A stretch of DNA of 64,000 nt from Cinnamomum chago (Eukaryota > Streptophyta > Magnoliopsida > Laurales > Lauraceae), in contig CP142452.1 in the NCBI GenBank assembly GCA_038049695.1, positions 52,038,501-52,102,500 on the forward strand, written 5' to 3'. The notes beneath the pieces were generated by a model. It did no database searches and had not been told where the DNA came from. It saw nothing but the letters and a program-made list of their open reading frames with translations. This document shows positions 4,669 through 53,085 of this stretch, piece by piece; position 1 is the first letter of the stretch, and each line of letters opens with the position of its first letter. The translations under genes and the position numbers were made by a program.

Positions 4669-5071
4669 ACTGTAAGACCTCGTCCCGAGTGACCTCGATT
4701 AGTATTTAGTAAGCGGTGTTTTAGTTCTAAGCGTGTTTAGTGTGTTTTGGGTAAGTTGGGAATAAAATAACTTATGTTATAGCTTTGGGGAATTTTGATT
4801 GCCTTTGTGACTAGTGGGCCCTTTGGGGGTTCCTTTTATGACTTTGTGTTTACTTGAGGGATTATCTGAAATTCTTGTGTTTTATTGTTTTAATCCCATT
4901 TTATTTATCTCATTAGTCCCTACAACTTTTATGTTGATCCAGTGCCCGTTCGAGTCTCCAAAACCTGACTTTCCTAGCATGGAGGCAAAACAATCATTGT
5001 ACACTAAATCTGTACCCAAAATTTGATATCACCGAAACCCGTGAAACATATACTTTTTGGAAACTATATAT

Positions 5072-5102
5072 TTCGATGATCACTTTTCTCTTCTTCATCA
5101 AA
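5072..5102 (+). repeat. U3 inverted repeat, family A1
   Basis: TTCGATGA pairs with TCATCAAA across a 15-base loop. The same place in other copies carries TTCGACGA/TCGTCGAA, so both arms changed together. Confidence 0.6.
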
Positions 5103-6022
5103 TTCATCTAAAGTCCCGAAAACAATGATTTCAGCCCACAAAGGATTCTAGTGGTGGGACCCAACTCCATCTTCTATAAAAAAAGAACTCTCTTCTCCCT
5201 TTCCCCTTTTCTAGCTCAACTCCAATCTTCACCTAAGGTTTCCTTTTCTTCATTCTTCTCTTGCTTTCCATCACCAAATCCACTACTAACCTTGCACAAA
5301 TTGAGAAATAGATATCCCCATCTTCTTCCTCAACACCATAGCTCTCCATTGATACCATTTTTGGAAAAGACCTCCCATTCCAAGACTCTCTTTGAGCTCT
5401 CCTTGCCTATTTGGAGAACCTTCAAGTAAGCAATCCTCCCCATTTCTTAGATTTGTGTTCCTATGGCCTTGAAGAGGCTCCATTTTCATTATTGTAAGGT
5501 TTCCCTTTATATTTCTTGTTTTGACCCATTTAGGGTTTGTTTTTGGGGATTTTGGCTCATAGCTTGGATTCTAGGCTTGGAGGAGTGTTCGAGCTTGTTA
5601 TTGATTAGCTTGGACCCAAGGTAAGTGGATGACTTGATTTTTATGAGTTTTCAATGGTTTTATAAGAAATGTAGTTGATTTTATTGTGTTTCCCATACAT
5701 GCTCATTTATTGCTTTGACTCGAAATGAATACTCATATAGAGCCTTGAGAGTGCATTTATTGTCATAGAAATGTATTGGTTCATGTCATTCAATTTTCTC
5801 TTATTTTATCTCAAATGTGCTCTTGTGTGTAGTGGTTTCCTTCCCTTATTTCTTTGTATTTGTATGTGATATTGTTGGAGGAAGATGGAATGGATGCTGT
5901 AGGAGATTTGATGTTGATTTGGATGGAGTTTTGGAACTCCTCATTTGGTGTTTAAAGGAGGTTGTAGAAGGAAGAGAAAGAGAGGAGAAGAACTGTCCTG
6001 GAACCAGTTTCTGGATAGTTCG

Positions 6023-9000
6023 TGTCGCGACCCCGGACCGGGCCCCCATGAAGAAACTGATCCGGAGTCGGGACATTGGTTGTGATGATGATCATGATGA
6101 TGAATAACCACAACATCACCTAAAAATGATAACTTACATACATTTAATTTCCGACAGGTGTCCGCGGTGAGGATATCACAACCATAAATGAACATTTCTA
6201 TAAAGTGCGGAAGCATGTAGCAAATCAAATAGTCAGACTATCTATAGACGTGAAAGCATAATCATCAAGTATCAAAACTGTATCAGAAAGAGCAATGATC
6301 TAAAGCATGTTACCCAAAGTGAGTTGAAGTTTATACAAATATCACTTATTTACATTCTCCAAAATTAGAGGCCAACAAAGGCCAATATAAACAAAACAAT
6401 AACCCAATGAATGTTTAAATAGTTCCCCTCAAAATGTTACGCCTCTCTTAGCAACCCGATGTCTACATGACATCGTCAGCGCGCCACTCGACTAGAAGTT
6501 GCGGCTCACCTACCGCCTCCTCTGGCTCCTCCTCAAGGAAACCGGCAACGGGACTTGAGTACCAAAGCAAATGGGTCAGACACGACGGTCTGGGAAGAGA
6601 ATGAGAAGATACAACAACATATAATAATAAAGGGAATACCTTGAAAAGCATAGAAATCTGTTTAAACAAGAACTCTCATAGAGTAGATAAATCACTTGTT
6701 AGAAAACAGGTAAATAAGGTAAAACCATAAAGGTAACCAAGGAATCGGGAACTAACAAGATGGCAATCACATAAAGCTAAGTCCTCTATCACTAAAGTGA
6801 CAACAGTATAACGGGACGTTGATCTCAGTCACTCAAGGTGAGGAGATTCAACGCAAATCATATATACAATAAAAATATACGGGACGGGACCACGGTAGCT
6901 AACCGGGTATCGGGACGGGACCACGGTAATAGACCGGGTATCGGGATCCAAACTGTAGCTGGCGGGACAAGAGAGGGATCTCCAAGTCGGTGGATCAAAC
7001 CGACAAGGTATCCAAGCTTAGTGATGCCAACTCATAGGTCAAATAACAAATCGAGACATATGCAAGTAAATCAAGTACAAATACATAAACAAACGGGCAA
7101 GACGGGGGTGCTCAAGGGCACACTGTCATATCATGTGGTGCAATGCACTTCAAGACAAGTAACTATTTTAAGTGTAATTCAATACTTTCGGGAAAACAAG
7201 GCATGTAGTATAAATCTAGGGAACAATGAAATACTATAGAGCTTTTGAAATCTCAAGACAAGTATTGGGGTTCAAAACTAGTTCATGGTGAATAGGGACC
7301 CCCCCCGTATGTCGATTTGATAAAAATTTGGTACTCTTTGAGTTTGGGGACATTCCGGGCTCCTTATACACTTGAATTTTCAAAACTTCGAATGACATCT
7401 TCGTGATATGGTTTCTTTCTCAAATGGCCTCATACAATGCCTAGTGAATCTCCTTTGACTGACAAAGCTCAGCGCTCGAGCGAACCGGAGAGTTCGCTCG
7501 AGCGAGGAGCTCTCTGAAACCTGGAAAATTTCGGTCACCTGGCGGTCGGCCGCCGCTGGGATGGTCGGCTAGCCACTGGCTGACCGCGCAGCTGACCGCG
7601 GCAGGCTGCAAAAATACAGCTTACTGGAAAGCTAACCGCCAAGGTGCGGTTAGCTGGCGGTTAGCCGCCGCTGGGATGGGCGGCTAGCCGCTGGCTAACC
7701 GTGGGTTAACTGTGTTTTCAGGTGGAGAAGTGTGCTCTCTGAAAAAGCAACCGTGACATTTCGGCTAGCTGGCGGTTAGCCGCCAGTCACCAGACGGCTA
7801 GCCGCCGGGTGACCGCTGGCTGATCGCCAGGTGTGGGAAACACCCACTGTGTTCAGATTTGAGCCCTTTCTCCTCCTCAAAACCATTCTCCCCACTTCCA
7901 CTTAGTCCCTGCAATTAAACTGAGCTAGGAGCTCTTCCAATGCCTCTATCTCTACTTCTCCAAAACCCCCGCGTGTGTTCATTCATCACCTCATTCTCCC
8001 ACATCAAGTCCAATACAAAGGAAGGAGGAAGGAAACCATTTCACAACATTCATTTAGGATATAACCAAAAGACAATAAATACTAAACCAACATGTTTACA
8101 AAACATTAAATGACTTAGCCAAGATGCATTCATTTCAACAATCAATGCAAGCCCATAAATATGAGTGAAATGACAAGTCAACCACATTCCTCATGAAATC
8201 CATTGAAAGCTCATAAAAACCAAATCATCCACTTGCCTTGTGTCTTCAATTCAAGAAATCAAACTCCTACACTCTTCCAAGCCAAAGATCCAAGCTATAA
8301 CAAAAACCCCAAATCAAACCCTAAAATGGGTCAAAACAAGAAATAGGTAGGGAAACCTTACAATAATGGAAATGAAGCTTCTCTAAGGCTAGAAGAATGC
8401 AAATCTAGAAGAAGGGAAGGATTACATACTTGTAAGGTCCTCTAATGGCAAGAGTAAACTCAATGAAGATCTTGGAATGGAGGGTTTTCTTCACAAATGG
8501 TATCAATAGAGAGCCACGTGAAGAGGAAGAAGAAGATGATCTCCATTTCTCGATTGATGCAAGTTTGGTGTGGATTGGAGGTGGAGAGAGCAAGAGGAAG
8601 AAGAAAAGTTGCCAAAAGCAAACCCTAGGTTCTTTTTGTGCTGGAAAAAGGGAATGGGAAGAGAAAGGTTCACCTTAAAAACAAGTAGGGAGTGGGCTCC
8701 ACCACCAACAAATCTAATTGGGCTGAAATCATCTCTTTCGGGACTTCTAATGAATTCGACGAAGAAGAAAGAAATGATCGCCGAAATATCTAGTTTCCAA
8801 AAAGTATATGTTTCACGGGTTTCGGGAATATCAAGTTTTGGGTACAGATTTAGTGTAAAAAAATTGTTTTGCCCCTCAAGGCTATGAAATCGGGTCTCAA
8901 GATCTCAAATGGACACGGGTCCAACAAGAAAGTTGTATGTAATAACAATACCAATAAAACGAGATTAAAACCATGAATGCAAAAATCTCCGATAAATCCC

Positions 9001-9187
9001 CAAACATGTGCAATGTCATGAAAAGGAACCCCCAAAGGGCCCTACTAGTTACCAAAGCATTCAAAGTAACCCAAAACTAGAATCAAAGCTATTCCAAGCC
9101 CAACTTAGCCAAAATCACTAATCAAGTTTAGCACTAACACGCAACTTAATTAGCACTAATCGGGTTCACTCGGGTCGGGGTCTTACA
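6023..9187 (-). mobile_element. Solo LTR, family A (copy A2)
   Basis: On the minus strand it runs from TGTAAGACCCCGACCCGAGT (9187) to GGTCGCGACA (6023), 3165 bp. The TSD GTTCG is present at 6018-6022 and 9188-9192. It lies inside copy A1 in the opposite direction, at the edge of A1's own palindromic array. It has no internal coding region. Donor-like ACAAG|GCAAGTGG is at 8237|8236 on the minus strand; the acceptor region lies near 6555. After the acceptor a minus-strand frame to 6463 encodes an acidic tail ending VEWRADDVM. A second small frame, 8405-8593 minus, is shared with other copies. It is an old, non-functional copy. Confidence 0.88.
7470..7835 (-). repeat. Palindromic short-repeat array in A2
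   Basis: CGCTCGAGCGAA units (7472-7508) are followed by many GCGGTTAGCCGCC / GGCTAGCCGC units. These are self-complementary and GC/CpG-rich in an otherwise AT-rich LTR. The array is about 1.35-1.72 kb from the LTR's 5' end. Confidence 0.75.
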
Positions 9188-9192
9188 GTTCG

Positions 9193-9476
9193 CTCGAGCA
9201 AACTTGAAAGGTCGCTCGAGCGAGGTGTACAGAAAAGGGTTCGTGCCATTCCAGTGGACAATTCGCTCGAGCGGACCCCTTTGTCGTTCGAGCGAACCCT
9301 CCCGAAACTCGTTCCAGAGAGTGGTTAGTTCGAGCGAACCGAACTTTCGTTCGAGCCAACCTGATGCTGGTTGAGTTCGCTCAGTGACCTCAATTTCGCT
9401 CGAGCAAACCCACCCAGAAGACCATTCCAGAGACCACCTCGCTCGAGCGAACTCTCCGGTTCGCTCGAGCGATGTG
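9193..9476 (+). repeat. Palindromic short-repeat array in A1
   Basis: At least eight units match the perfect 16-base palindrome GTTCGCTCGAGCGAAC or near variants, spaced by unrelated 15-40 bp. The first unit forms the target site of copy A2. Offset in the LTR, ignoring A2, is about 1.35-1.64 kb. Confidence 0.8.
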
Positions 9477-10950
9477 CTCTGTCGGTCAAGGGCTATGTTT
9501 GGGACAATGATGAATTGTTTAAACATTTTGGGAATATTCATTGAGAACCCCTTTATGTCAGGGAGATTTACTAGGCAATGTATGAGGCCATTTGAGAAAG
9601 AAACCACATCACGAAGATTTCATTTGAAGTTTTGAGAATCCTAAGGTCCATAAGGAGCCCGGAATGTCCCCAAACTCAAAGGGTACCAAGTTGTTATTAA
9701 ATCGACATACGAGACCCCTATTCACCTTAAACAAATCTTGAACCCCGATACTTGTCTTGAGGTTTCGAAAGTTCATCTGTATTTCATTATTCCCGAATTT
9801 CTTATGCATTCCCGAAAATATTGAAATTGAAATTGTAGCATTTTGCTAATCCCGACAAGCTTTCCTCGATTGATATAACAGTTGTGCCTTTGAGCACGCC
9901 TGTCCCGCCTGTTTATTTACTTGCACTTGATGTATTTTACACATGTCTTGATTTTTTGTTATTTGACCTATGCGTTGGCACCACTAAGCTTGGATAACCT
10001 TGCAGTTTGATCCACTGACTTGGAGATCCCCCTCTTGTCCCGCCAGTTGCAGTTTGGTTCTCGCTACCCGGTTATTTCCGTGGTCTTGTCCCGATACCCC
10101 GGATTGCTACCGTGGTTCCCGATGCCCGGCTCGCTACCGTGGTCATGTCCTGTATATTATATGTATATGTATATATATTTCGTTGTTTCTCCTCACATTG
10201 TGTGACTGAGATCAACGCCTTGATATTGCTCTGGTTGCCATCTTGCTTGTTTCCCGATTCCTTGGTTACCTTTACATGTTTTACAACGCATACTTGTATT
10301 TGAATAAATGATTTATCTCTTTTATGGAAATTGTTATTTAAACAGGTTTTAAATGCTTTTGAAGGTAAATTCATTTATTATTATATTGTTATGTCTCTTC
10401 ACCCATTTGCCAAACAGTCATGTTTGACCCACTCTTTGGTACTCAGGTCCGGACATTGTCTATCCTGAGGCGGAGCTTGAGGACGCGGTCGGTGAACAGC
10501 AACGCCTAGTTGAGTGACATGCTAATGATGTCGTTTAGACATTTGATTGCTTTGAGAGACGTAACATTTTGGGAACATTTAACCATTCTTTTGGGGATTG
10601 GTATTTTGTTTATATTGACCTTTGTTGGCCTCTATTTTTGGGAATGTAACTAAATGATCTTTTGTGTAAACTTTAATCTTTCTTTTGGGAAAGCACTTAT
10701 GATCATTGCTCATTCTGATACTTGGTTTATATAAATGTGTTTTTATCTTGTAATTAGAATTGAATTGTGAATGTTTGATTTGCTACACGCGTCCACACTT
10801 AACAGAAATATTTATGTTATTGTGATATCCTCACTGCGGACACATGTGGGAAATTAAATAAATGTACGGTATTAAACTAAATATGTACACACATATTATG
10901 AGTCCCGATCCCAGATTAGGACCTTGGTAACCCGGTTCGGGGTCGCAACA

Positions 10951-15190: not shown

Positions 15191-18870
<3,680 letters not shown>

Positions 18871-23123: not shown

Positions 23124-23538
23124 TGTTGGGATTGGTGTATGTTAGACCCCGACCCAGACCTAGTCGATTAGTGTGCGATTAGTATGTGTTTAGTTCTAAG
23201 TGGGTTTAGTCGTGGTTGGGTTAGAAGTGATTAGTTAGTTTGGACATAGCTTTGGGAATTTGAGAACGTCTAGTATTAGTCAGACACACTCAGGAAGGCC
23301 TGAGTGCACGTGTAAGCTTGGGAAGATCGTATTGATTTTCGGGTGAGTGTGATTTTGATTTCATGTGAATGATCTCGTTATGTGTTACAACTTTCTTTTT
23401 AAGCCCATTCGTGTTTGAAGCCCAAAAACCCATGTTTTGGCCCAAAGAGGGTAAAATTGTCTTTCTTGCATAAATCTGGACACAATTTTCGAGATCTCAA
23501 AACCATGTCAAAAATATACTTTTTGGAAACTAGATATT

Positions 23539-23570
23539 TCGACGATCATTTTATCCTTCTTCGTCGAAGT
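23539..23570 (+). repeat. U3 inverted repeat, family A5
   Basis: TTCGACGA and TCGTCGAA flank a short loop of about 15 bases. The same structure is present in A1-A3 and in both family B LTRs. Confidence 0.65.
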
Positions 23571-24329
23571 CATCCAAGGCCCACAAGACCATGTTTTAGT
23601 CACTTCAAGTTCAAGCCAAATGGGGCCCATGAGTCATCACTTAATCCCCTTTCCCCTCCCTTTTCATTCATTTCCCAATCTCTGCAACTTTTGAGTCTAG
23701 GGCAAGAGAGAAAACCTCTTTTCTCCTTCATCTTCCTCACTTGGTTTGATCTAGCTAGAGAGCTCCAAAGGGAATTCTAAGACTACCATTTTCTTCATCT
23801 CCTTGCAAGCTTTCCATTGATACAAGTTTCTCGAGTTTTCAAGTTGGGCAAGAGCTCCATTTCTCTCCCTCCCTCTTGTGTGGCCATTTCTAGGTAAGGG
23901 TTTCCACTCATACTTTCCATTGAGTCATTTTAGTTCCTTAAGATCATGTTTTTCATGTTTTCAAACCCTATTTGGAAAATGGGTTTCTTGTTTCCATTTT
24001 TTTGAGTAAGTTTTGTGTGTTTTCTTGGTTTGGCTTGTAGTGTGGGATTAGCTTGTGTGAAGAGCTTGAAGTGGAGTGTTTAGCATTTGGGCAAGGCAAG
24101 TAATCTCTATAGGATCATTGTGCATGTTATTTTAAGCTACATTATTGTTTTGGAAACTTTGCATATGGATATGTTTACAAGCTTTATGATTGTGTTTTCA
24201 TGAGTTTTGGATGTGTGCTTTGTCCCTTGGAGAGTATGTAGACTCAGGGAATATAAGTGGAATGAGAATGAATGGAAGGGAAGAAGAGAAATGTGAAAAA
24301 TCTGTGCTGAAACGCATTCCCGTGCACTG

Positions 24330-24650
24330 GCGGTCAGCACAGCGGTCAGCTCGCGGCTAGCCGCCTGTGTCCACTTCGGCTAACCGCATGCTGACCGAAC
24401 TCGGCGGTTACCTTTCCAGAAGCTAGCATTTTCACCTGGGACCAGCGGTCAGCTCCGCGGTCAGCTCACGGCTAACCGCCAGTCCTACTCGCGGTTAACC
24501 GCAAGCCAACCGCGCAATGCGGTTCCATTTCCCGAGAGCTAAGTTCAAAATTGGTATTTCAGCGGTCAGCCTGGCGGTCACCTTGCGGCTAGCCGCCGGA
24601 CCCCAGTTCGGCTAGCCGCCACCTGACCGCGAGGTGACCGAAATTCACTG
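24330..24650 (+). repeat. Palindromic short-repeat array in A5
   Basis: Units resembling GCGGTCAGCTCGCGGCTAGC and CGGCTAGCCGCC recur about ten times with unrelated spacers. They are GC-rich and partly self-complementary. The array starts about 1.19 kb into the LTR. Confidence 0.75.
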
Positions 24651-29993: not shown

Positions 29994-30005
29994 TGGTATC
30001 AGAGC
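29994..30005 (+). other. Primer binding site, tRNA-iMet type
   Basis: TGGTATCAGAGC begins five bases after the 5' LTR and is complementary to the 3' end of initiator-Met tRNA. Confidence 0.85.
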
Positions 30006-32917: not shown

Positions 32918-35900
32918 TGTGAGGTCCCACCCTTGGTGGGCCCTCTAAATACTACTTTATAGACTAATTTATGCTAATCTATGTTAATTATTGGTTAATT
33001 ATTGCTAATTACTACTAATCTTTGCTAATCTTCGCTAATTATTGCTAATTATGGCTAATCATTGTTAATTACTGATTTATTTGGGCTAATTAGGGGCTAA
33101 TTAGATTGACTAGTTAGATCTCCTAAGATTTTTGGTTAGACTAGGTTAGTTGGGTGTATGAGTTAATCCTAGGCTATTAGTGTAGGTGGGTCCTTAGTTA
33201 AGTTTAATTAAGTTAATTAAGTGGTTTAGTGCTAATTGTGCATCTCTAGAAGCTTCCTACCAAAGGACCAAACTAGCCCCAACCCTAACCCTAACCACAT
33301 AAAAACCCTAGGGCTAATCTTGTCCTTAATCTCTTCCCTAGACCTATATAATGGCTCTAATCCCCATTCCAAACCCAAAACCCTAAGCCAGCCCCTTTCC
33401 CAAGAAAACCTCCAGCAACTGTTTTCCCATTTCCTCTTCTCCTCTCCCTCATTCCTCTCCTACGTATGAGCTGAGAAATTGCAACAGTCACTGTTGCTGG
33501 GATTTCCCTCTTGAGACTACTACAGCTGCTCCTTCATTCTCTCTTCTCCCTTTCCCATTTCATTTCCTCCAAGCCACTGCTATATCATCTTCTCATTTCC
33601 CTCATTTCTTCCCTCATTCTGAGCTACTGCTGTTTGTTCTGGGAGCATTGTTCCTTGGAGCAACAGCTGCTACTTCACATTCTTCTCCCTCATTTCTTCA
33701 CCTGGGAGCTTTTGTAGCTGATTCTGTTGCTGCTGGGATTTGCATCAAGGAGTTGCAGTTACTGTTACAACTACTGCATCATCTTCTTCTTCTTCTTCTC
33801 TGGTTCAGCTGGGACTCTCTTCTCTCTTTTATTGCTCAAATCATTTCTCTTGATTTCTAAAGGCAAGTGCACCTACTGTTAACTTAGAATGTATGTGTTT
33901 TCCTTTGATTTCTGTGTTTCATTTCATGTTTGTAATTAATTGAGTCTTAGAAATTACCTGGAGCCTCTGTTGTTGGTTTGGATGGATTTGGGCATTGATG
34001 GATGGGGGTTTCACCCCCCCCCATTTGGAAGATCAATGGGCCACAAGGTTGTCAATTAATGGGCATTAGAGTTGTTTGATGTTTGGAGATGATTTGGTGA
34101 AGTTTGGGACTGATTGGAAGTGATTTGGTGGAAAAACGGGTTGAAATGGAGAAAACCTGAAAACTGGTCTCAGTGCATGGCCGAGACCAGTGTATGGCCG
34201 AGATCAGTGTATGGCCGAGCTCAGTGCATGCCGAGACCAGTGCAGGACCGAGCTCAGTACATGGCCGAGACCAGTGCAGTACATGGCCGAAACCAGTGCA
34301 GTGCAGTGCATGGCCGAGACCAGTGCAGTGCAGTACATGGCCGAGACCAGTACAGTGCAGTGCATGGCCGAGACCAGTGCAGGACCGAGCTCAGTACATG
34401 GCCGAAACCAGTGCAGTGCAGTCCATGGCCGAAACCAGTGCAGTGCAGTGCATGGCCGAGACCAGTGCAGTGTAGTGCATGGCCGAGACCAGTGCAGTAC
34501 ATGGCCGAAACCAGTGCAGTGCAGTGCATGGCCGAGACCAGTGCAGTGCAGTGCATGGCCGAGACCAGTGCAGTGCAGTGCATGGCCGAGACCAGTGCAG
34601 GACCGAGCTCAGTACATGGCCGAGACCAGTGCATGGCCGAGACCAGTGCAGTGCAGTGCATGGCCGAGACCAGTGCAGGACCGAGCTCAGTGACTGAAAT
34701 TTCATGGAAAAGATGACCTGATACTTGGGATTTACAGTAGAAAATGTTTAAAGCTGGGACATCCATCTTTCTAGGGTTTTTGGTGTATGCGGTCAATCAC
34801 CCAGGCCAGGTGTTTGACCGGACACGCTGGAAACCTTTAGAAATGAATTAAGTCTTCCAGGAGGCCTGACTTAGGTTAGTCAGTGCACTCGGTTGGTCCT
34901 CCCGGCCAGGAGATCAACCGAGCTCACAACACATCAGGTTCACCTGGAAAAAAAAACCCTGATTGTTCCAGTTTTCAACATTTAGGAGTTATGATCAGTT
35001 GTGGGGCCCATTGACCATCCAAATGAGCATTTATCAGTGATCTAAGCCCGAGTCAACGGTGTGGCTCAACCTTGACTCGCGGGGACCACAATTTAGGGTT
35101 TAGGTTATTAATCTAAGATGATTCGACCTCTAAGAGTTGTCAACAATGCCCTTAACCAACTAAGCACCAAATATAGTATTTTATGGCATTAATGACACCG
35201 TTTAGAGATCGAATTACCGGAGATAGACCTGGATCTAAAGTGGCCCATTACCTAGGATTGGACCGTTGCTTTTCCCGTTGATTCTCTGATTGAAGTTATA
35301 CTTCACTGTTATTATTATTCTGTCATTCTTAGATCTTTAGAATAGCTGTTTACTATTAATTGAACATAAATGGAAGACCTGAACCTAGGGTATCTAGAGG
35401 TGACCCGATAGTGTGGTTTCGGAGATCATTGACCCGTGTCTGTGTCTAGGCGGGCCCTTAATGGGCCTAAGTGTGGAGATGTGAACCCTTTAGCTTGGAA
35501 AGGTAGTTTCTATTGGACTGTTAAGTAATATGGATTGCAATGGAACTGTTTATCAGTAGTAGATGGATTAGTTGCCTCGTTTGGACGGTTTTAGACCAGG
35601 CCATGTACTGATGGGCCTTGGTATGGATCCAACGAGTGGGCCTGGACCTTGAATGAGATCCAGAGACTGTATTGGGATGTGTAGACCTCTTAGAGATATT
35701 GTTAGGACCTTGTTCACGCAAGGCAAAGCCTAGACAGGCACAGACCTTAGAGTTATTCTCGAGTCGGCATGAACATTCACTCGGTTGATTTAAGCTCAGC
35801 CTGTGGACTGATCATCCCCGGTAGGAGCTAGTTGAGTATGGTGAAGCTATCATGATGAGCTGTGTGGTTAAGACGGCAAGGTGTCATACCGTGCCGATCT

Positions 35901-36692
35901 GGAGTGATGAGATGATGAGTTGATGAGTGATATTCGGGATTAGTTATTCCCTGGTGAGATTCCCCACCGCGACTGTGTTCAGTATGGGAGGGCCGCGGCA
36001 TAATATCCCGCGGTATTCCAGCTCGTGTGAATGTGCCACATTGTTTATAGTAGTTTAGATGTTTCTATTTATACTGATTCCTTATGATTTAAATGCACAA
36101 CTGCCTAGTTCATTTCCCTTGCTATTCATTTAATTTATGTACTCGTCTTTACTTCCTTTGATATATATGTTCTATGTTAGTAGTATGCTGTAACTTGCCA
36201 GATCGTTTAGATCTGACCCATTCATTGGTGCTTAGGCCTTGACCCAGAGATCCCTGACGACGCACTAGCTGTAGTGGAGGCACCCGTTGCTGGAGAGTAC
36301 GCGTGGGGCCCGGCCGACACGGATGTCGAGCCGGAGGGCGAGGAGTTTATACACGGGTTTTGAGGGACTCCATTTATTTTGGGTTTGAGCGAAACTTTGT
36401 AGTGAGTTGGGTAGACTCAAAATGTATTAACTTTGATTAATATTGAATCATTTTAATTAGACTGATGTTCCGCTCATACTTAATATATATATACATCGAT
36501 ACCTATTGCTTCCGCTTTGTTTAAATCGTTATGCTTCCGCAATTTAAATGTTATAACTATGTTGGTCAAAAAGTTTTAAATTGGACCTCACTGCGGCCTA
36601 CGATCTTGGAAGTTCTCGGATTTTCCGGAAAGTAGCGCGCCAATTTCGGGTAATCGAACGAGTATATCGGTATCCGGAATTGGGGCGTTACA
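32918..36692 (+). repeat. 3' LTR of the chromovirus
   Basis: Almost identical to 26328-29988. It is 114 bp longer, mainly because the minisatellite has about five more units, partly offset by one fewer U3 decamer. Donor-like AAAG|GCAAGTGC is at 33862|33863, acceptor-like CTTAG|G at 36235|36236. Confidence 0.93.
34173..34692 (+). repeat. Minisatellite in the 3' chromovirus LTR
   Basis: The same unit as at 27596-27990 but in about 23 copies. Since both LTRs were identical at insertion, the difference arose afterwards. Confidence 0.9.
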
Positions 36693-40853: not shown

Positions 40854-42224
40854 TGTGAGAACCCGACCCCTAATCTCTTGGATTAGTGTTGTTTTATTTG
40901 TGGATTAGTTCTTTTAGTGGGATTAGTAGTTGTTGGGTTGAGTTTGTGAGCTAGAATGGTTTTTCTTCTAGTTTTGGGCTTTTGAGTGCTTTGGTAGCTT
41001 GTGGGGCCCTTTGGGGGTTCCCTTTTCGGCTTTGCATTTTCTTGTGAGATTTTTCCGATTGGTTTCATATTGTGTTTTTGGCCCGTTGCATTCATCTTGA
41101 GGAATCCTACAACTTTCATGTTGATCTCGTATCCATTTGAGAACCCGAAACCCGATTTCTTGGCCTTGAGGGCAAAACAGTCATTGCACACCAAATCTGT
41201 ACCCAAAACTTGATATTCTCGAAATTCGTGAAACATACACTTTTTGGAAACTAGATATTTCGACGATCATTTCTTCCTTCTTCGTCGAATCCATCTGAGG
41301 TCCCGAATTAGATGATTTCAGCCACCCAAGTTCTTTAAGTTGTGGGACCCATTCTCACTTGCTTATAAAAGGAGACCCTTCCCCTTCCTCTTCCATTTTT
41401 CATTGTTCCAGCACAACCCTTTTGAGTCTAGGGTTTTCTTGCTTTCTCCTCTTCTTCTTGCTTCTCCATCTTCAAGCCACACCTAGAGGTCATCAATCAA
41501 GCAATAGAGATCATCATCTCCTTCCTCATCTTACAAGCTTTCCATTGGTATCATTTGTGAAGAGAACCCTCCATCACAAGGCTTCCCTTGAGCTCACCTT
41601 GTCCATTAGAGGACCTTCCAAGTAAGTGATTCTTCCCATCTTCTAGATTTGTAATCTTCTAGCCTTAGAGAAGCTCCACCTTGATTATTGGAAAGTTTCA
41701 TTGTCATTTCATTGTTTAACCCACTTTTGGGTTGTTTTGGGGGTTTTTGTAGAGATTGTGGATCTTGAGCCTAAGAGGTGATTAGGAGCTTGATTTGCTT
41801 GATTAGAGTCAAAGGCAAGTGGATGAATGGATTGTTTTGATTATTAACATGTTTTGTGAGAAAATCTTGATTCATTAATGGTTTTGGTGATTTTAATAGT
41901 TGTCTTTAATATGATTAATATTGATTTCAAGATGTGCTTATTGATGAGTTATTTCTCCCTTATTAATCTCTTGGAAATGTATGTATCATAGTATCAAGAT
42001 TTCAAATGGTTTCACATGAATGAGTTTTCTCCACTTTTGAGATTTATTGTGAATGGAAAGGATGGAAATGGAGGAACTTGAAATGAGGAGCTCTTTAGCT
42101 CATTTTAATGTCTTGGAAACATGTGTTTAAGTCTCCTTATGTATAATTCTATCTGATTGATTATATGTTGGAAGGAAAGGAAACAAAAAGGAAAAAAATC
42201 AAGTTCCCGGACCTGCACTGCGCC

Positions 42225-42390
42225 CAGGCCCGATCGATCGGACGTTCAAACCGATCGATCGGGCTGACTTTTAACTGTAAGGCTTTTTCAGCCGATCGAT
42301 CGACCGATCGATCGGACCCTGTACATTTCTGGTACAGAAATTTCGACAGATCGATCGGCCCTTTGGACCGATCGATCGGAGGACTCAGTT
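42225..42390 (+). repeat. CGATCGATCG palindromic array in B1
   Basis: Six or so units of CCGATCGATCGG, a perfect palindrome, alternate with unrelated spacers. Offset in the LTR is about 1.37-1.54 kb. Copy B2 has a shorter version at 51597-51682. Confidence 0.85.
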
Positions 42391-43639
42391 TGAGTCCAGT
42401 GAAATTTGATATTGTGTTTTTTTGGAAACCTTTGGGCCTTCTATGAGTCCTAGGGGTATATACCTTAGTGTTAAGACCAATTGTACCCTAATCTAAGGTC
42501 TCTAAGACTAGAGAACTAAAAGAAAAGAATGGTGTTGATTAGACACTAATTCTTGGTTTCAGGTGGGACCCTGGCTACCCTTTTTGGACTGTTTGGACCA
42601 TGTGTGAGAATGTCTTGAGCCGACGCGCCTCACGGTTGGTTCGGTGGCATCGAAGTCCAATTCATTTCAATCTTGAACGGGATGGAACGACGCGATATCT
42701 TCTTTATATCTAAACACAAGTCTTTCCCTTGGTTATCGCGAATTCCATTCCTTTCGGTGACTGAATAGGTTGCTCGATGTTTCCGGATTAATGTCATGCC
42801 TAGGATGGACCGTTGATAATCTTGATTCTTGCTATTGTAACATCTAGAACTACCCATAAGCTCAAGTTAAGATTTTAAAATAGTAAAAGTGCATAAGGAG
42901 CCCGGAATGTCTTTAAACTCAAGGAGTACCAAGTAATTGTTAGAATCGACATACGGGACCCCTATTCACTTAAATAGATCTTGAAATCGATATTTTTACC
43001 CGAGATTGTTATAGTTCATTGTTTCACCTCTTTTCCCGAGATTTGCATTACATGACTTGTTTTCCCGAAAGCATTGAAGTTACTTTAGTAACAGTTATTT
43101 GTCCCGAGATGTATTCCCGATATGAAGTGACAGTGTGCCCTTGAGCACCCCCGGTTTACCCGTTTATTTACTGTACTTGATTTACTTGCATATGTCTCGA
43201 TTGGTTTTGACCTATGAGTCGGCATCACTAAGCTTGGATACCTTGTCGGTTTGATCCACCGACTTGGAAATCCCTCTCCCGTCCCGCTAGCTGCAGTTTG
43301 GATCCCGATACCCGGTTATTGCCGTGGTCCCGTCCCGATACCCGGTTCGCTACCGTGGTCCCGTTCCCGTATATTTATATTGTATATATGATTTGCGTTG
43401 AGTCTCCTCACCTCGTGTGACTGAGACCAACATCCTGTTATACTCTTGTCACTTCGGTGATAGAGGACATAGCTTCTTGTGATTGCCATCTTGCCAGTTC
43501 CCGATTCCTTGGATACCCGACATGTTTTATATTGTTTACTTGCTTTCCGATAAATGATTCGTTTCCTTTATGAAAGTTGTTATTTAAACAAGTGCTAATA
43601 TTCTCCAATGTAAATTCAGTTATTATTATATGGTTTTCT

Positions 43640-44330
43640 GTCCTTTGTACCCGCACATGTTTTAAATGAATGCCGGCTGGGTGAATAACCATGCTTTTAC
43701 ATATGTTTCAAACGATCAATGATTTTGCTAGATTTATATGATTATACATGTTTTAAAAGAACACCCGAATTGTTAAATATCCGTGCTTTGTTGTAAATGA
43801 CATTTGGTTTGTCAGATATCTATGTTTATACCTGTTTTTAAATGAATACCCGAATTGTTAAATATCCCTGCTTTGAGATATGTTTTAAATGAACACTAGT
43901 TTTGACAGATTGCTTTGGTTTCACCGGTTTCAAATGAATATCCGATTTGTTAAATATCCCTGCTTTGAGATATGTTATAAATGAACACTAGTGTTGACAG
44001 ATTTCTTTGGTTACACCGGTTTTAAATGAATACCCGGTTTTGTTAAATATCTGTATTTTCACATATCTTTCAAATGGACTTCGGTTTTGCCTGGCTGTTA
44101 TGGATACCTGATTTGTTGTATACTTGTGTTTTACTTAAGTTTCAGATGAACGTTTGTTTTGTCAAACCACTATATTTATACATGTTTTAGATGAATACCC
44201 GATTGTCAAATATCTATGATTATAGATGATGTAAATGAATACATGTTTTATTAGATGTTCATGTTTTACCCATGCTTGAAATGAATACAGGTTTTCCCCG
44301 AGATTCCCGACTTTGCACCCGTTTAATTAT
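43640..44330 (+). repeat. Tandem ~60-130 bp repeats in family B LTR
   Basis: Diverged copies of TTTTAAATGAATACCCGA followed by TTGTTAAATATC and GCTTTGAGATATGTT recur about nine times. Copy B2 carries the same block at 46560-47030. It is missing from family A and explains most of the extra length of family B. Confidence 0.75.
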
Positions 44331-44937
44331 ATGCAGCATTTGATCGATTAGCATGATTTATCATATGTTTTATTCTTCAGTATATTTGTGATCTTTTCAT
44401 CCACCTGCTAGACCGTCGTGTCTGACCCACTACTTTTGGTACTCAGGTTCAGATTTCTTCGCTCCGAGTTGAGTGCTTTTGTTGGCTGTAGAGCCATGCT
44501 TTGCAGGTTAGTTTGTCGGCTATGTCATGTAGACATTGAGCTTGACATCGGAGCTACGTCACATTTGGGTAGTAGTTTATAGCTTATTGTTGTATGGCTT
44601 TTATTAGCCTTTTCTTGGGATTCTTAATTAATGTACATTGATAATTGTAACTTGAATATATTTGGGAATGTAATATCCTGTTACTGTCAGCTCTGTAATT
44701 TATTGTGTTGGTTACTCCAGTCTGATATGACTCCTGATATAATAGCAATATGCTAAAGGTTGAGTGCGACGCGGAATCCGATGGCCACGGACTTCGGGTC
44801 GCAACGCCACAAATGCTTCCGCAAAATATTCAGAATGTGTTGTCTTCACACACGCGGATCCTGGGAGAAGTAAAATACATTTATGCTTAACCCCATTTCC
44901 CGCCCCCGAGGTTCTGGTTCGGGGGCGTGACATCCTC

Positions 44938-45933: not shown

Positions 45934-47030
45934 TGTCACGCCCCCGAACCGAAACCTCGGGGGCGGGAATGGGGGATTAAGCATAAATGTATTTTACTTC
46001 TCCCAGGATCCGCGTGTGTGAAGACAACACATTCCAACACATTCTGAATATTTTGCGGAAGCATTTGTGGCGTTGCGACCCGAAGTCCGTGGCCATCGGA
46101 TTCCGCGTCGCACTCAACCTTTAGCACATAGCTATTATATCAAGAATCATATTAGACTGGAGTAACCATCACAACAAATTACAGAGCTGACAGTAACAGG
46201 ATATTACATTCCCAAATATGTTCAAGTTACAATTATCAATGTACATTAATTAAGAACCCCCAAGAAAAAGGCTAATAGAAGCCATACAACAATAAGCTAT
46301 AAACTACTACCCAAATGTGACGTAGCTCCGATGTCAAGCTCAATGTCTACATGACATAGCCGACAAACCAACCTGCAAGGCATGGCTCCACAGCCAAAAA
46401 CAACACTCAACTCGGGGCGAAGAAATCTGAACCTGAGTACCAAAAGTAGTGGGTCAGACACGACGGTCTGGCAGGTGGATGAAAAGATAACAAATATACT
46501 GAAGAATTAAAACATAAGATAAATCATGCTATTCGAATCAAATGCTGTATATAATTAGACGGTTGCAAAAATCGGGAATCATGGGGAAAACCTGTATTCA
46601 TTTCAAGCATGGGTAAAACATGAATATCTAATAAAACATGTGTTCATTTACATCATCTATAAACATAGATATTTGACAATCGGGTGTTCGTCTAAACATG
46701 TATACATATAATGGTATGGCAAAACAACGTTCATTTGAAACCTATGTAGAAATGCGGATATTTAACAAACCGGATATCGTTTAAAACAGGTATAAACGTA
46801 GGGATCTGGCAAACAAGTGTCATTTGAAACATATTTCAAAGCATGGATATTTAACGAATCGGGTAATCATTTAAAACAGGTATAAACATAGATATCTGAC
46901 AAACCAAATGTCCTTTAAAACAAGCTCGGATATTTAACAATTCGGGTATTCCTTTAAAACATGTGTAATCATATAAATCTAGCAAAATCATCAATCGTGT
47001 GAAACTTATGTAAAAGCATGGGTATTCGCC

Positions 47031-50000
47031 TGTCGCGACTCCGGACCGAGAGATCCAGGATCGGGACTAATATTGATGTTAGGATGATCCACAACTGCTT
47101 AATAATACCATATGATTTATTTAATTTCCCACAGGTGTCCGCGGTGAGGATGTCATAACCATAATTGAATATTTCTGTCAAATGCGGAAGCATGTAGCAA
47201 ATCAAATAGTCAAACCATCCTTGGTCATAAAAACAATAACACCAGACTAAAATACTGTATCAGAATGAGCAATGATTTATAGCATGTTTCCCAAAGGTTG
47301 TTAAAGTTAGACAAAATATCATTTAATTACATTCCCAAAAATAGAGGCCAACAAAGGCCAATGTACACAAAACAACAACCCAAAAGAATGGTTAAATAGT
47401 TCCCCTCAAAATGTTACGCTTCTCAAAGCAATCTGATGTCTACATGACATCGTCAGCACGCCACTCGACTAGAGGTTGCGGCGCGCCTACCGCCTCCTCC
47501 GGCTCCTCCTCAAGGAAGCCGACAACGGGACCTGAGTACCAAAGCAAAGGGTCAGACACGACGGTCTGGCAAGAGAAAGCAATGATACAACAATATCTAA
47601 TACAAGAAAATCTCTGGTAAAGCGTATAAATCTGAGTTAAGCAAGAACTCTCATAAAATAGATAAATCATTTGTGATGAACAAGTAAACAATATAAAACA
47701 TATCAGGTATCCAAGGATTCGGGAACTAACAAGGTGGCAATCACATAAAGCTAAGTCCTCTGTCACTAAAGTGATAACAGTATCACGGGACGTTGATCTC
47801 TGTCACACAAGGTGAGGAGAAACAACGTATACATATATACAATATAATTATACGGGAACGGGACCACGGTAGCGAACCGGGTATCGGGACGGGACCACGG
47901 TATTAGACCGGGTATCGGGATCCAAACTGCAGCTGGCGGGACGGGAGAGGGATTTCCAAGTCAGTGGATCAGACCGACAAGGTATCCAAGCTTAGTGATG
48001 CCGACACATAGGATAAAACCAATCGAGGCATATCAAGTATTCAAGTACAGTAAATAAATGGTAAAACGGGGGTGCTCAAGGGCACACTGTCTTTCCATAT
48101 CGGGCAATACATTTCGGGGCAATTCACTGTTACTATTGTAGCTCCAAAGCTTTCGAGAGAACAAGTCATGCGATGAAATTCCTGGGAATGAGGTGAAACA
48201 ATACACTATAATGAAATTCAGGTAAAATATCAATTTAGAAATCCAATTAAGTGAATAGGGGTCCCGTATGTCTATTATAGCCCTTACTTGGTACTCTTTG
48301 AGTTTTGAGACATTCCGGGCTCCTTATGCACTCCTACGATTTTTCCAAAATTTCGAATGACATATTTGTGATATGGTTTCTTTCTCGAATGGCCTCATAC
48401 AATGCCTAGTGAATCTCCTTTGATCGACAAAGCTCAACGCTCGAACGAACCGGAGAGTTCGTTCGAGCGGGGAGCTTTTCGAAATCTGGAGAATTTCGGT
48501 TACCTTGCGGTTAGCTGGCGGTTAGCCGCCGATGCATTCGGCGGTTAGCCGCTGGGTAACCGTGGAGCTGACCGAATTTCAGGTGAGAATTCTGATGCTC
48601 TCGGGAAAAGGAACCGTGATTGTGCGGTTGTCTGGCGGTTAGCCGCCGATGGGTTCGGCGGTTAGCCGCTGGCTAACCGTGAGGCTGACCGCGTTTTCAG
48701 GTGGAAAATGATGCTCTCTGGAAAAGTCACCGCTAGCTGGCGGTTAGCCGCCGATGCATTCGGCGGTTAGCCGCTGGCTAACCGTGAGCTGACCGCCAGT
48801 TATGAAAATGCTCACTGAGTTCAGTTTTGAGTCCTTTTCCTCCTCAAAACCATCTTCCTCACATCCACAAAGTCCTTACAATAACATTGAGCTAATAGTT
48901 CCTCCAATGCATCTCCTTATACTTCTCCAAATCCTCATTAAGAGTTCTCTCCATCACTTCTTCCATGTCAAGTCCAATGCAAATAAAAGAGAAGTAAACC
49001 ATTTCACAAACATTCATCTAAGCTATCACAAGAACAATAAATGCTCTACCAACATGTTTATAAAACATTGAATGAAACTATCAAGATACATTATGAGCAT
49101 TTATTTCAAACAAACCTCATTAAATGAAAGTATGGAAAATCCATAAATACTTCACCAACCCATTTCAAACTTAAAAACATCCAAACATTCACTTGCCTCT
49201 AGTCCAAGCTAGTTGAAATCAAGCCTTTTATCACCTCTATTGCTCAAAGCCAAGCTACAAATCAAAAATCCCAAAACAACCCTAAAATGGGTTACACAAG
49301 GAATGACAATGAACAAACCAACAATAATGCAAATGTAGCTTCTCAAAGGCTAGAGGAACACTAATCTAGGAGATGGGAATGATCACTTACCTTGAAGGTC
49401 CTCTAATGGCAATAGCAAACTCAATGAAGGTCTTGGAATGGAGGGTTCTCTTCACAAATGGTACCAATGGAAAGCTTGAGAGATGAGGGAGTGATTGGTG
49501 ACTTCCATTGCTTGGTTGATGAGCTCTAGGTATGGCTTGGAGATGAAGAAGTAAGAAGAAGAAAAGAAGAGTCACAAGAAACCCTAGGTTCAGTTGTGCT
49601 GGAGCAATGGAGAGTGAATGAGAAGGAAAAGATGGGTTCTCTTTTGTTAACAAAGGGAGCTTGGGTCCCACAACTTAAGGAACTATATTAGCTGAAATCA
49701 TCTACTTCGGGACCTCGGATGGGTTCGACGAAGAAGGAAGAAATGATCGTCGAAATATCTAGTTTCCAAAAAGCACATGTTTCGCGGGTTTCAGGGATAT
49801 CGAGTTTTGGGTACAGACTTGGTGTGCAATGACTGTTTTGCCCTTTAGGCTATGAAAATCGGGTTTCGGGATCTCGAATGAATACGGGATTAACATGAAA
49901 GTTGTTGAGGTCTACAAGATGCATGCAACGGGCCAAAAACATAATCCACAATAAATCGGGAAATTCCTCGAGAAAATACAAAGCCGAAAAGGGAACCCCC

Positions 50001-50165
50001 AAAGGGCCCCACAAGCTACCAAAGCAAATCAAGACAATCGAATTAGCCCGAAACCATAATCAAAGCTAATCCAAACCCAACTTAACCAGAAATCACTAAT
50101 CAAGCTTAGCACTAACACACAACTTAATTAGCACTAATCGGGTTCACTCGGGTCGGGGTCTTACA
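47031..50165 (-). mobile_element. Solo LTR, family A (copy A3)
   Basis: On the minus strand it starts TGTAAGACCCCGACCCGAGT (50165) and ends GAGTCGCGACA (47031), 3135 bp. The TSD TCGCC is at 47026-47030 and 50166-50170, inside B2. U3 inverted repeat 49724-49754; donor-like AGAG|GCAAGTGAATG at 49197|49196; acceptor-like TACTCAG|G at 47532|47531. The minus-strand frame after the acceptor is acidic and ends VEWRADDVM at 47440. Another small frame spans 49387-49671. It is the clearest family A copy in the window. Confidence 0.9.
48437..48805 (-). repeat. Palindromic short-repeat array in A3
   Basis: A CGTTCGAGCG pair is followed by six or more GGCGGTTAGCCGCC / GCGGTTAGCCGCTGG units. Offset from the LTR 5' end is about 1.36-1.73 kb. 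Confidence 0.78.
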
Positions 50166-51596
50166 TCGCCCAACCGGCATTCATTTAAAACATGTGCGGG
50201 TACAAAGAACAGAAGGCAATATAATAATAACTGAATTTACATTGGAGAATATTAACACTTGTTTAAATAACAACTTTCATAAAGGAAACAAATCATTTAT
50301 CGGAAAGCAAGTAAGCAATATAAAACATGTCGGGTATCCAAGGAATCGGGAACTGGCAAGATGGCAATCACAAGAAGCTAAGTCCTCTATCACCGAAGTG
50401 ACAAGAGTATAACGGGGCGTTGGCCTCAGTCACACAAGGTGAGGAGACTCAACGTAAATCATATATACAATATAAATATACGGGAACGGGACCACGGTAG
50501 TGAACCGAGTATCGGGACGGGACCACGGCAATAATCGGGTATCGGGATCCAAACTGCAGCTGGCGGGACGGGAGAGGGATTTCCAAGTCGGTGGATCAAA
50601 CCGACAAGGTATCCAAGCTTAGTGATGCCGACTCATAGGTCAAAACCAATCGAGACATATGCAAGTAAATCAAGTACAGTAAATAAACGGGTAAAACGGG
50701 CGTGCTCAAGGGCACACTGTCACTTCATATCGGGCAATACATTCGGGACAAATAACTGTTACTAGTGTAACTTCAATGCTTTCGGGGAAACAAGTAAATC
50801 AAGTACAATAAATAAACGGGTAAAACGGAGTGCTCAAGGGCACACTATCATATCATGTGATGCAATGCACTTCGGGACAAATGACTGTTACTAGAGTAAC
50901 TCCAATGCTTTCGGGAAAACAAGTCATGTAATGCAAATCTCGGGAAAAGAGGTGAAACAATGAACTATAACAATTTCGGGTAAAAATATCGGTTTCAAGA
51001 TCTATTTAAGTGAATAGGGGTCCCGTATGTCGATTATAACAATTACTTGGTACTCCTTGAGTTTGAAGACATTCCGGGCTCCTTATGCACTTTTACTACT
51101 TTCAAAACTTAAAATGAGCTTATGGGTAGTACTAGATGTTACAATAGCAAGAATCAAGATTATAAACGGTCCATCCTAGGCATGACATTAATCCAGAAAC
51201 ATCGAGCAACTTACTCAGTCATCGAAAGGAATAGAATTAGTGATAACCAAGGAAATAGACTTGTGTTTAGATATAAAGAAGATATCGCGTCGTTCCATCC
51301 CGTTCAAGATTGAAATGGATCAACTCCGATGCCACCGAACCAACCGTGAGGCGTGTCGGCTCAAGACATTCTCACACATGGTCCAAACAGTCCAAAGAGG
51401 GTAGCCAGGGTCCCACCTAAAACCAAGAATTAATATCTAGATCATCACCATTCTTTCCTTTTAGTTCCCTAGTCTTAGAGACCTTAGATTAGGGTATAAT
51501 TGGTCTTAACACTAAGGTATATACCCCTAGGACTCATAGAAAGCCCAAAGGTTTCAAAAAAAAATAACAATATCAAATTTCTCTGGACTCAAACTG

Positions 51597-51682
51597 AGTC
51601 CGATCGATCGGCTCAAAAAGCCTTACAGTTAAAGACAGGCCGATCGATCGGCCTATAGGTCCGATCGATCGGACCTGGGCGA
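51597..51682 (-). repeat. CGATCGATCG palindromic array in B2
   Basis: Three CCGATCGATCGG-type units remain, against about six in B1. Confidence 0.8.
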
Positions 51683-53085
51683 GCAGCAGGTCCGGGACAC
51701 TGATTTTTCCTTCCTTTTTCCTTTCCTTTCCAACACTTAAACCGCTAGCATTTCTCTTCCATAATCACTTCAAATCCTCATTAGAACTCCAAGGAACAAT
51801 TAAATTCAAACACCTCTTTAAATGAGTATCATTTCAAGTCAATGTAACTTATAACATAACCATGAATAGCCAATCCAACCTCATTCCTTATAAAACCATA
51901 TGAACAAACTTGACCAAATAAATGCATACATTCCCAAGAGTTCCAAGAGATTTAACAAGAGAGAAAAACCCATTTATATGCATTTCGAAATCAATAGAAA
52001 TGTGACAAGAAGCATATGTGCAAACATGCATCCAATGATCAAGAACAAGTAATAAAACTTAGGATTTTTTTCATAAAACTTAATAACATTCAAACCATCC
52101 ATTCATCCACTTGCCTTTGACTCTAATCAAGCAAATCAAACTCCTAATCACCTCTCAAGCTCAAGATCCACAATCTCTACAAAAACCCCCAAAACAAACC
52201 CTAAAATGGGTTAAACAATGAAATGACAAGGAAACCATTCAATAATCAAGGTGGAGCTTCTCTAAGGCTAGAAGATTACAAATCTAGAAGATGAAGAAGA
52301 ACACTTCCTTGGATGACCCTCAAATGAGAAGAACAAGCTCAAGGGAGGTCTCTAGGTTGGGAGATTTCTCCAAAAAATGGTATCAATAGGGAGCCATGGT
52401 GAAGAGGAAGAAGAAGATGGTCTCCATTTCTTGATTGATGAACTCTTGGTGTGGCTTGGAGATGAAGAAGCAAGCAAGAAGAAGAAGTTGTAAGAAAATC
52501 CCTAGGCTCAATAGTTGTGCTGGAACAATGGAGAATGGGATGCAATGAAGGGGATGGGTTCCTCTTATAAGCAAGTGAGGTTTGTGTCCCATAACTTAAA
52601 GAACTTGGGTGGCAGAAATCATCTCTTTCGGGACCTCGGATGAATTCGACGAAGAAGGAAGAAATGATCGTCGAAATTTCTAGTTTCCAAAAAGTATATG
52701 TTTCACGAATTTCGAGAATATCGAGTTTTGGGTACAGATTTGGTGTGCAATGACTGTTTTGCCCTCAAGGCCAAGAAATCGGGTTTTGGGTTCTCAAATG
52801 GATACGGGATCAACATGAAAGTTGTAGGATTCCTCAAGATGAATGCAACGGGCCAAAAACACAATACGAAACAAATCGGAAAAATCCCACAAGTAAAAGC
52901 AAAGCCGAAAAGGGAACCCCCAAAGGGCCCCACTAGCTACTAAAGCACTCAAAAGCCCAAAACTAGAAGAAAAACCATTCTAGCTCACAAACACAACCCA
53001 ACAACTACTAATCCCACTAAAAGAACTAATCCACAAATAAAACAACATTAATCCAAGAGATTAGGGGTCGGGTTCTCACAAAGGC

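What the first reader, a model, noticed from the sequence alone, without database searches (positions are those of the whole stretch)
4671..53080. Conserved candidate intron inside Ty3-type LTRs of three families
Eight LTR copies (A1, A2, A3, A5, B1, B2 and both chromovirus LTRs) carry a donor-like (C/A)AAG|G(C/T)AAGT at 945-969 bp from the LTR start: 5620, 8237(-), 49197(-), 24095, 41814, 52115(-), 27282, 33862. Most use GC, an accepted minor donor. Seven also carry an acceptor-like TGGT(A/G)CTCAG|G or TGCTTAG|G; the eighth, A2, has the block in weakened form. It lies 457-532 bp before the LTR end: 10446, ~6555(-), 47532(-), 25504, 44446, 46433(-), 29531, 36235. The DNA between varies in length from about 1.4 to 2.6 kb and in content, but the two edges hold their places. 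Splicing it out would remove most of a 2.5-3.5 kb leader and bring the primer site and gag close to the cap. I know of no description of an LTR-borne intron of this form.
Basis: partly seen in the sequence, partly recalled or inferred. Interest (0 to 1): 0.9.

Follow-up and report, generated by a model that had tools for sequence, protein, structure and literature searches.

The report
Intron-like splice sites in retrotransposon LTRs
Long end repeats of related plant-type jumping-gene families carry matching splice-site motifs at fixed places, kept in dozens of separate insertions, and the cell likely cuts an intron there, which would set the RNA used to make protein apart from the RNA copied into new insertions.

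Summary
The window lies in a 1.06 Gb assembly with thousands of candidate relatives. In 30 A-type LTR copies (the window's A3 included) the donor is intact in 30 and the acceptor AG in 29; in seven B-type copies each is intact in 6. First, a short open frame starts exactly at the acceptor, with some sign of protein selection, so the exon may be coding. Second, elements with an internal region have an acceptor directly before the gag start codon (21 A leaders, one C, one other plant), so the LTR donor may splice there and remove the primer-binding site. Two other-plant relatives have their best donor after a TATA-like box in the LTR. No RNA evidence was available; no genomic copy of a spliced junction was found. 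Real and conserved; splicing likely, unproven; site pairing unsettled.

The parts
4671..10950 (+). solo LTR A1 (TSD CATAC), interrupted by A2
6023..9187 (-). solo LTR A2 (TSD CGAAC), nested in A1
47031..50165 (-). solo LTR A3 (TSD GGCGA), nested in B2
23140..25997 (+). solo LTR A5 (TSD GTGTA)
40854..44932 (+). solo LTR B1 (TSD TCCTC)
45934..53080 (-). solo LTR B2 (TSD GCCTT), interrupted by A3
26328..29988 (+). 5' LTR of element C (C1)
   Evidence: primer-binding-site-like TGGTATCAGAGC follows at 29994-30005
32918..36692 (+). 3' LTR of element C (C2)
5621..10446 (+). candidate intron in A1 (GT-AG; contains nested A2)
6555..8236 (-). candidate intron in A2 (GC donor; acceptor AA, so probably dead)
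47532..49196 (-). candidate intron in A3 (GC-AG)
24096..25504 (+). candidate intron in A5 (GC-AG)
41815..44446 (+). candidate intron in B1 (GC-AG)
46433..52114 (-). candidate intron in B2 (GC-AG; contains nested A3)
27283..29531 (+). candidate intron in C1 (GC-AG; donor decayed to GCTAGT)
33863..36235 (+). candidate intron in C2 (GC-AG)
29495..29511 (+). hairpin CAGATC-GTTTA-GATCTG whose 3' arm runs into the branch-point-like CTGAC in C1 (same in C2 at 36199-36215)
29532..29659 (+). exon 2 open frame in C1 (41 codons in phase 1, then stop; same in C2 from 36236)
47440..47531 (-). exon 2 open frame in A3 (29 codons in phase 1, then TAG)
26763..26774 (+). TATA-like box of C1 (C2: 33343-33354; A1: 5174-5185; B1: 41362-41374; B2: 52561-52571, minus); none clear in A2, A3, A5
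   Evidence: promoter use is inferred
49385..49393 (-). second donor-like site AAG|GTAAGT in A3 (LTR offset 775); variants at 754-767 in A1, A2, A5, B1
30230..32917 (+). two pol frames of the gag-less element C (RT, RNase H, integrase zinc part; SH3; weak chromodomain)

Best explanation
These Ty3-type LTRs carry a conserved donor-like site about 950 nt in and a conserved hairpin/branch-point/acceptor-like block about 500 nt before the end, and the element's RNA is likely spliced from that donor in part of the transcripts. Proposed working: transcription would start after the TATA-like box at LTR about 425-510 (inferred), giving a first exon of some 400-500 nt. A share of transcripts would be spliced at the mostly GC-type donor, either to the LTR acceptor or to the acceptor that sits 0-4 nt before the gag ATG. 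The second route would remove U5 and the primer-binding site, so spliced RNA could be translated but not reverse-transcribed. Unspliced RNA would stay the genome, which would explain how an intron in an LTR survives replication. The weak GC donor and a hairpin next to the branch point could keep splicing incomplete. Shown: the sites, their places, their conservation, the gag acceptor sequence, the open frame after the LTR acceptor. Inferred: transcription start, splicing, site pairing, and the role in replication.
For: Donor intact in 30 of 30 A-type copies (window A3 included) at offset 958-976, acceptor AG in 29 of 30; by my count, 24 of the 30 have an exact 5-bp duplication on both sides, so they are separate insertions. 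B-type: 6 of 7 for each site. C-type: the 5 exon-1 matches and 31 of 35 exon-2 matches scored run 2 nt past the junction, as an intact GC donor and AG acceptor would give; the other 4 are one tandem array, whose one copy read has the AG but lacks a C after it. Branch-point-like CTGAC, TTGAC or TTGAT about 20 nt before the AG in the nine window copies; CTGAC or CTGAT in the 30 loci. Hairpin: 32 of 32 cells paired, G-C to A-U on both sides in 3 of 8 distinct rows; 8 of 500 shuffles reach the score. G+C rises across the acceptor in 9 of 9 copies and falls across the donor in 8 of 8, barely in A2. Per-site variation in 30 copies: 0.59 at hairpin plus acceptor, 0.62 in the last 58 nt before the donor, 1.70 overall. 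Gag-ATG acceptor CTAAC..TTTTG(C/T)AG before the ATG: branch point and AG in 21 of 21 A-type leaders read, exact TTTTGCAGCATCATG in 18; TTCTTTTTCATGACAG|ATG in the one C copy with gag read; CTCTTTCAACCTATAG|GAGAATG in another plant's element, L007. Other plants' LTRs: best donor CAG|GTAAGT in L002 and AAG|GTAAGG in L003 after TATA-like boxes, T rising 0.10 to 0.42 and 0.23 to 0.38; an acceptor of score 11.9 in the LTR of L004, about 560 nt before its end.
Against: No transcript data. No junction-spanning genomic copy among the 40 scored of 2126 (C) and 40 of 4078 (A) candidates. On a recalled plant matrix the GC donors rank only 6th-32nd in their LTRs or LTR pieces; A1's GT donor ranks first. 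A second donor-like site near 754-775 scores higher than the GC donor in A2, A3, A5 and B1. The donor window is not exceptional by identity (250 of 883 against A3). T does not rise clearly across the donor. If the LTR acceptor only closed a leader intron, the open frame after it would have no use. The gag acceptor is no better conserved than the rest of its leader in the 21 copies (0.375 against 0.263); in L007 it ranks sixth in the first 2 kb, in C fourth of 5 kb, and in L003 and L004 none of the six best acceptors lies at the gag start. A2, A3 and A5 have no clear TATA-like box.
Confidence: 0.5

Rival explanations
1. The LTR acceptor is real but its partner is a coding donor inside the element: it would start a C-terminal exon in the 3' LTR, giving Gag or Pol a short tail; the LTR donor is unrelated or feeds the gag acceptor.
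For: The frame from the acceptor has no premature stop in 28 of 28 A-type copies read (2 of 30 loci missed by the script's pattern; one copy has lost the final stop); pooled N/S ratio 0.45 against 1.10 and 0.62 in the other frames, column-shuffle fraction 0.003 of 1000; the coding-signal scan marks it from the G codon in C1, C2 and A5; same phase in A and C while the spacing upstream of the AG varies by single bases. Pol ends with a donor-like PHLLP(E/Q)|GTA(A/T)GT in C and L001 and GCGAGT in an A-type copy.
Against: The pol-end donor is phase 0, the exon phase 1. Comparing by eye the 16 best donors of each, I saw no phase-1 donor shared by A and C in gag-pol. A and C peptides are not similar by HMM. 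The scan does not mark the frame in A1, A2, A3 or B. A1 has an internal stop and B1 and B2 a stop after 7 codons; 2 of the 7 fetched B copies lack that stop. With B and other rows included the ratio is 0.59, and other 90-nt stretches, one on the minus strand at 0.14, score lower.
Confidence: 0.2
2. The two blocks are conserved DNA or RNA signals of another kind (promoter, polyadenylation or reverse-transcription elements of U3/R/U5) that merely resemble splice sites.
For: The hairpin is more conserved than a branch point needs; a stretch inside the interval is more conserved between A2 or A3 and B1 than their 5' LTR parts; no spliced copies among those scored.
Against: Donor, branch point, AG, base composition, reading phase and other-plant parallels fit splicing at once.
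Confidence: 0.2
3. Conservation is only common descent of recent copies; the edges are no more than neutral LTR sequence.
For: The 29 other A-type copies fetched are 90-98% identical to A3 over the matched LTR; the donor window is ordinary by identity.
Against: A/B and C LTRs give no BLAST match to each other, yet share the acceptor block and a donor motif at the same offset; hairpin covariation.
Confidence: 0.1

Closest known systems
Ogre (Ty3/gypsy, pea and Medicago) intron
   Same: plant Ty3 element, partly spliced RNA (passages of PMC6317226 and PMC12786077)
   Different: the Ogre intron lies between protein ORFs in the internal region; here the sites are in the LTR
BARE1 (Copia, barley) and EVD/EVADE (Copia, Arabidopsis) Gag splicing
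   Same: a spliced RNA serves translation beside the full-length RNA (passages of PMC3735527 and PMC12786077)
   Different: their introns lie at the gag end or over the protease, not in the LTR; BARE also uses two promoters
Bagy2 env splicing and CRR splicing
   Same: plant Gypsy elements with spliced RNA (named in passages of PMC3735527)
   Different: they make env or remove rt; no LTR intron is described in the passages seen
Retroviruses with an LTR splice donor (HTLV-1 and others)
   Same: donor in the transcribed part of the 5' LTR (recalled; one search lists PMC11599126 for 'LTR splice donor', paper not read)
   Different: animal retroviruses; acceptors lie in internal genes (recalled)
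MIKKI (rice) and Echinococcus TRIM solo-LTR transcripts
   Same: splicing that involves LTR sequence (passages of PMC5599236 and PMC4558846)
   Different: a single domesticated locus, or donors that may be there by chance, not a feature kept across families

Membership tests
Tekay-type chromovirus | Ty3-type pol with RT, RNase H and integrase | tested here: met
   In C, Pfam above cut-off for RVT_1, RT_RNaseH, Integrase_H2C2 and SH3_Tf2-1; A-type pol known only by tblastn (L001) and translation, not scanned with Pfam
Tekay-type chromovirus | chromodomain at the integrase end | tested here: inconclusive
   PF00385 at 19.5 bits in C, below the 25.1 cut-off; A not scanned
Tekay-type chromovirus | place in an RT tree | not tested
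   no tree built; the clade name is inferred and partly recalled
U2-type GC-AG intron | donor near consensus with GC | tested here: met
   AAG|GCAAGT or GAG|GCAAGT in 6 of 8 window LTRs (A1 has GT; C1 GCTAGT)
U2-type GC-AG intron | branch point, pyrimidine stretch and AG | tested here: met
   A2 has AA instead of AG; the pyrimidine stretch is short, and the acceptor ranks 1st to 27th in its LTR or LTR piece on a recalled matrix, A2's 155th
U2-type GC-AG intron | spliced RNA | not testable with these tools
   no transcript collection
Ogre/BARE/EVD-type retrotransposon intron | intron at the gag/pol border | tested here: not met
   the sites lie in the LTRs

The most novel reading that the evidence does not exclude
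Tekay-type chromoviruses across plants keep an LTR-borne 5' splice donor that joins the cap-proximal exon straight to the gag start codon, deleting U5 and the primer-binding site, so that splicing alone decides whether an RNA is messenger or genome; the same LTR also carries an acceptor that adds a protein-coding last exon when read in the 3' LTR.
Probability: 0.3. Interest if true: 0.85.

Novelty: new variant of a known kind. Interest (0 to 1): 0.6.

Why it matters
How one retrotransposon RNA serves both as messenger and as genome is an open question in plants. A donor in the LTR and an acceptor at the gag start would give a simple switch: splicing removes the primer site. It would also give solo LTRs, common among the copies fetched here, a ready-made promoter, first exon and donor, so they could start spliced transcripts of nearby genes. 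In the listings and passages I saw from searches no paper describes an LTR-borne intron in plant Ty3 elements; two searches listed only 20 of 806 and 20 of 49 papers, and the library lacks most subscription journals and all preprints.

Tried and rejected
Tried without result: relatives in viral contigs; tRNA and Rfam scans of the window; A-C peptide homology of exon 2, which I had thought I saw by eye and hmmsearch does not support; other coding signal in the LTRs, where the scan listed chiefly tandem repeats and antisense of CT-rich stretches, plus one short A3 segment; codon-pattern scans of the A3 LTR, which found no convincing further exon; a phase-matching donor in gag or pol; genomic copies of a spliced junction. 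Rejected: reading exon 1 as coding (stops close to the donor in phase 1 in A1, A2 and A3); reading the frame upstream through the acceptor (spacing before TTGG varies between 5, 6 and 7 nt; TGA just upstream in A1 and C). Corrected: my impression that L018 is an A/B recombinant; its own acceptor is A-type.

The splice-site matrices are recalled approximations of plant consensus, not from a call; ranks from them are rough.
Full report
What is there. The window holds six solo LTRs of two related families (A1, A2, A3, A5; B1, B2), a partial copy (A4) and one Ty3-type element, C, with both LTRs. C has pol frames beginning about 240 nt after the 5' LTR and no gag. Boundaries set by target-site duplications give 945-969 nt before the donor and 457-532 nt after the acceptor, as reported.

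Family identity. A contaminant plant contig in a bacterial assembly (L001) carries pol 73% identical to C's, followed by an LTR start of type A. In the window's own assembly an A-type element with two LTRs spans C12:55000247-55016916 (LTRs L015 and L014); its gag (with a stop at codon 208) and pol end are of the same kind, and its internal region of 10.4 kb is longer than expected. So A and C are related, probably Tekay-type chromoviruses; no tree was built, and the chromodomain match of C is below the Pfam cut-off. That the genome is a plant's is inferred from the relatives.

Conservation. The A3 LTR search found 58 matches, with 15,973 first-look candidates of which 40 were scored; 30 loci were fetched. 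The donor core is intact in 30 of 30 and the acceptor AG in 29 of 30, L010 being the window's own A3. By my count, 24 of 30 are solo LTRs with an exact 5-bp duplication; L014/L015 and L023 belong to longer elements; L013, L021 and L030 are less clear. Of the B-type search (79 matches, 36 of 14,655 candidates scored) I fetched windows of 7 copies: donor 6 of 7, acceptor 6 of 7. Variation per site in 30 copies is lowest in the 100 nt up to the acceptor (0.30 and 0.59) and low in the 58 nt before the donor (0.62), against 1.70 overall. The donor alone is not exceptional by identity: 250 of 883 windows match it against A3, 96 of 1218 in the five-LTR alignment. The strongest argument is the comparison with C: A/B and C give no BLAST match, and the profile match in the 3' region is the hairpin-acceptor block at E 2.8e-5, with a second weak one at 0.037. 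In the 5' region no significant match was found, yet the donor motif sits at the same offset.

The acceptor block. All nine window copies have a short hairpin whose 3' arm runs into CTGAC, TTGAC or TTGAT, then a spacer of 5-7 nt before TTGGTRCYYA. The four pairs are kept in all 32 cells, with a double change G-C to A-U in three of eight distinct rows; 8 of 500 shuffles reach that score. Two of the four pairs never vary, so the covariation evidence is real but small.

An open frame at the acceptor. Read in phase 1, A copies give 29 codons ending ...DDV(I/M)* (A1: NDVV*, with an internal stop) and C gives 41 codons. In the A-type loci 28 of 28 read are free of premature stops (one has lost the final stop; L018 and L023 were missed by that script's pattern). 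Substitutions favour synonymous sites: pooled ratio 0.45 against 1.10 and 0.62 in the shifted frames, reached by 0.003 of 1000 column shuffles. Against this: adding B and other rows raises the ratio to 0.59, other stretches score lower, B1 and B2 have a stop after seven codons, the coding-signal scan marks the frame only in C1, C2 and A5, and A and C peptides show no significant similarity. I take coding as probable but not shown, and no partner exon was found.

The gag acceptor. In A-type elements gag starts CTAACCATTTGTTTTGCAG|CATCATG; branch point and AG are present in 21 of 21 leaders read: L040 plus 20 fetched of the 40 listed. It is the best-scoring acceptor in the 3.5 kb of L040; in the 5 kb C stretch the gag acceptor ranks fourth, in the first 2 kb of L007 sixth, and in L003 and L004 none of the six best lies at the gag start. 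C reads TTCTTTTTCATGACAG|ATG in the one copy read and L007 CTCTTTCAACCTATAG|GAGAATG. Splicing from the LTR donor to this site would remove U5 and the primer-binding site. A messenger without primer site cannot be that template.

Other plants. L002's 1.7 kb of LTR has CAG|GTAAGT as its best donor (score 12.2; next 7.7), 141 nt after a TATTTAAG box; L003 has AAG|GTAAGG (10.4; next 8.6) 160 nt after CTATAAATA. A donor of 11 or more is expected 0.06 times in a shuffled L002 LTR, but one of 9 or more 0.7 times in L003, so L003 alone is weak. L004 has an acceptor of score 11.9 about 560 nt before its LTR end and another about 285 nt before it.

What is missing. No RNA. Junction probes found no spliced genomic copy: all 40 scored matches of each probe stop within 2 nt of the junction (40 of 2126 candidates for C; 40 of 4078 for A). 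That fits unspliced genomes, and equally fits no splicing; a diverged junction copy could have been missed. The LTR-gag junction could not be searched because the server stayed busy.

Literature. Passages seen: PMC12786077 says plant LTR elements generally lack introns, with Ogre and EVADE as exceptions; PMC6317226 on Ogre; PMC3735527 on BARE1, Bagy2, CRR and U-richness of plant introns; PMC4558846 and PMC5599236 on LTR-involving splicing elsewhere; PMC7730604 on spliced sunflower Copia elements, noting that Tekay members were absent from its expressed set; PMC2832683 and PMC11963269 held nothing on LTR introns in the passages shown. Listings only.

Verdict.

Noticed in passing
window 26328-36692; L057, L058; pairs listed: C elements without gag look multi-copy: L057 and L058 join the leader to protease or RT sequence by different deletions, and exon-2 spacings of about 6.6-7.8 kb recur.
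   Followed up: partly
G000:C3:43707054-43733218 and G000:C1:66234382-66251381: C-type exon-2 matches recur at 8.67 kb spacing (4 units) and A-type gag leaders at 8.2 kb spacing (3 units), suggesting LTR-internal-LTR tandem arrays.
   Followed up: no
window 6618-7373, 42887-43632, 47637-48343: A stretch of about 700 nt inside the candidate intron is 81-85% identical between A2 or A3 and B1, more than their 5' LTR parts; function unknown.
   Followed up: partly
window 49385-49393 (A3), 41621 (B1): A second donor-like site at LTR offset about 754-775, and acceptor-like sites some 54-59 nt before the main donor in C and A3 (by eye in others), suggest an extra small leader exon.
   Followed up: partly
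window 32855-32866; L001:3304; L041 end: Pol ends with a donor-like PHLLP(E/Q)|GTATGT, GTAAGT or GCGAGT shortly before the 3' LTR.
   Followed up: partly
C1 LTR 3500-3565 and the A-type U5: A second motif shared by A/B and C in U5, TGCTTCCGCA...CCTCAC(C/T)GCGG (nhmmer E 0.037).
   Followed up: no
window 53355-61913: A Copia element with 97% identical LTRs of about 1.6 kb and long gag and pol frames on the minus strand.
   Followed up: no
L001-L007 (Streptomyces, Mycobacterium, Solirubrobacter and other assemblies): Public bacterial assemblies contain contigs that encode plant-type Ty3 pol, evidently contamination.
   Followed up: partly
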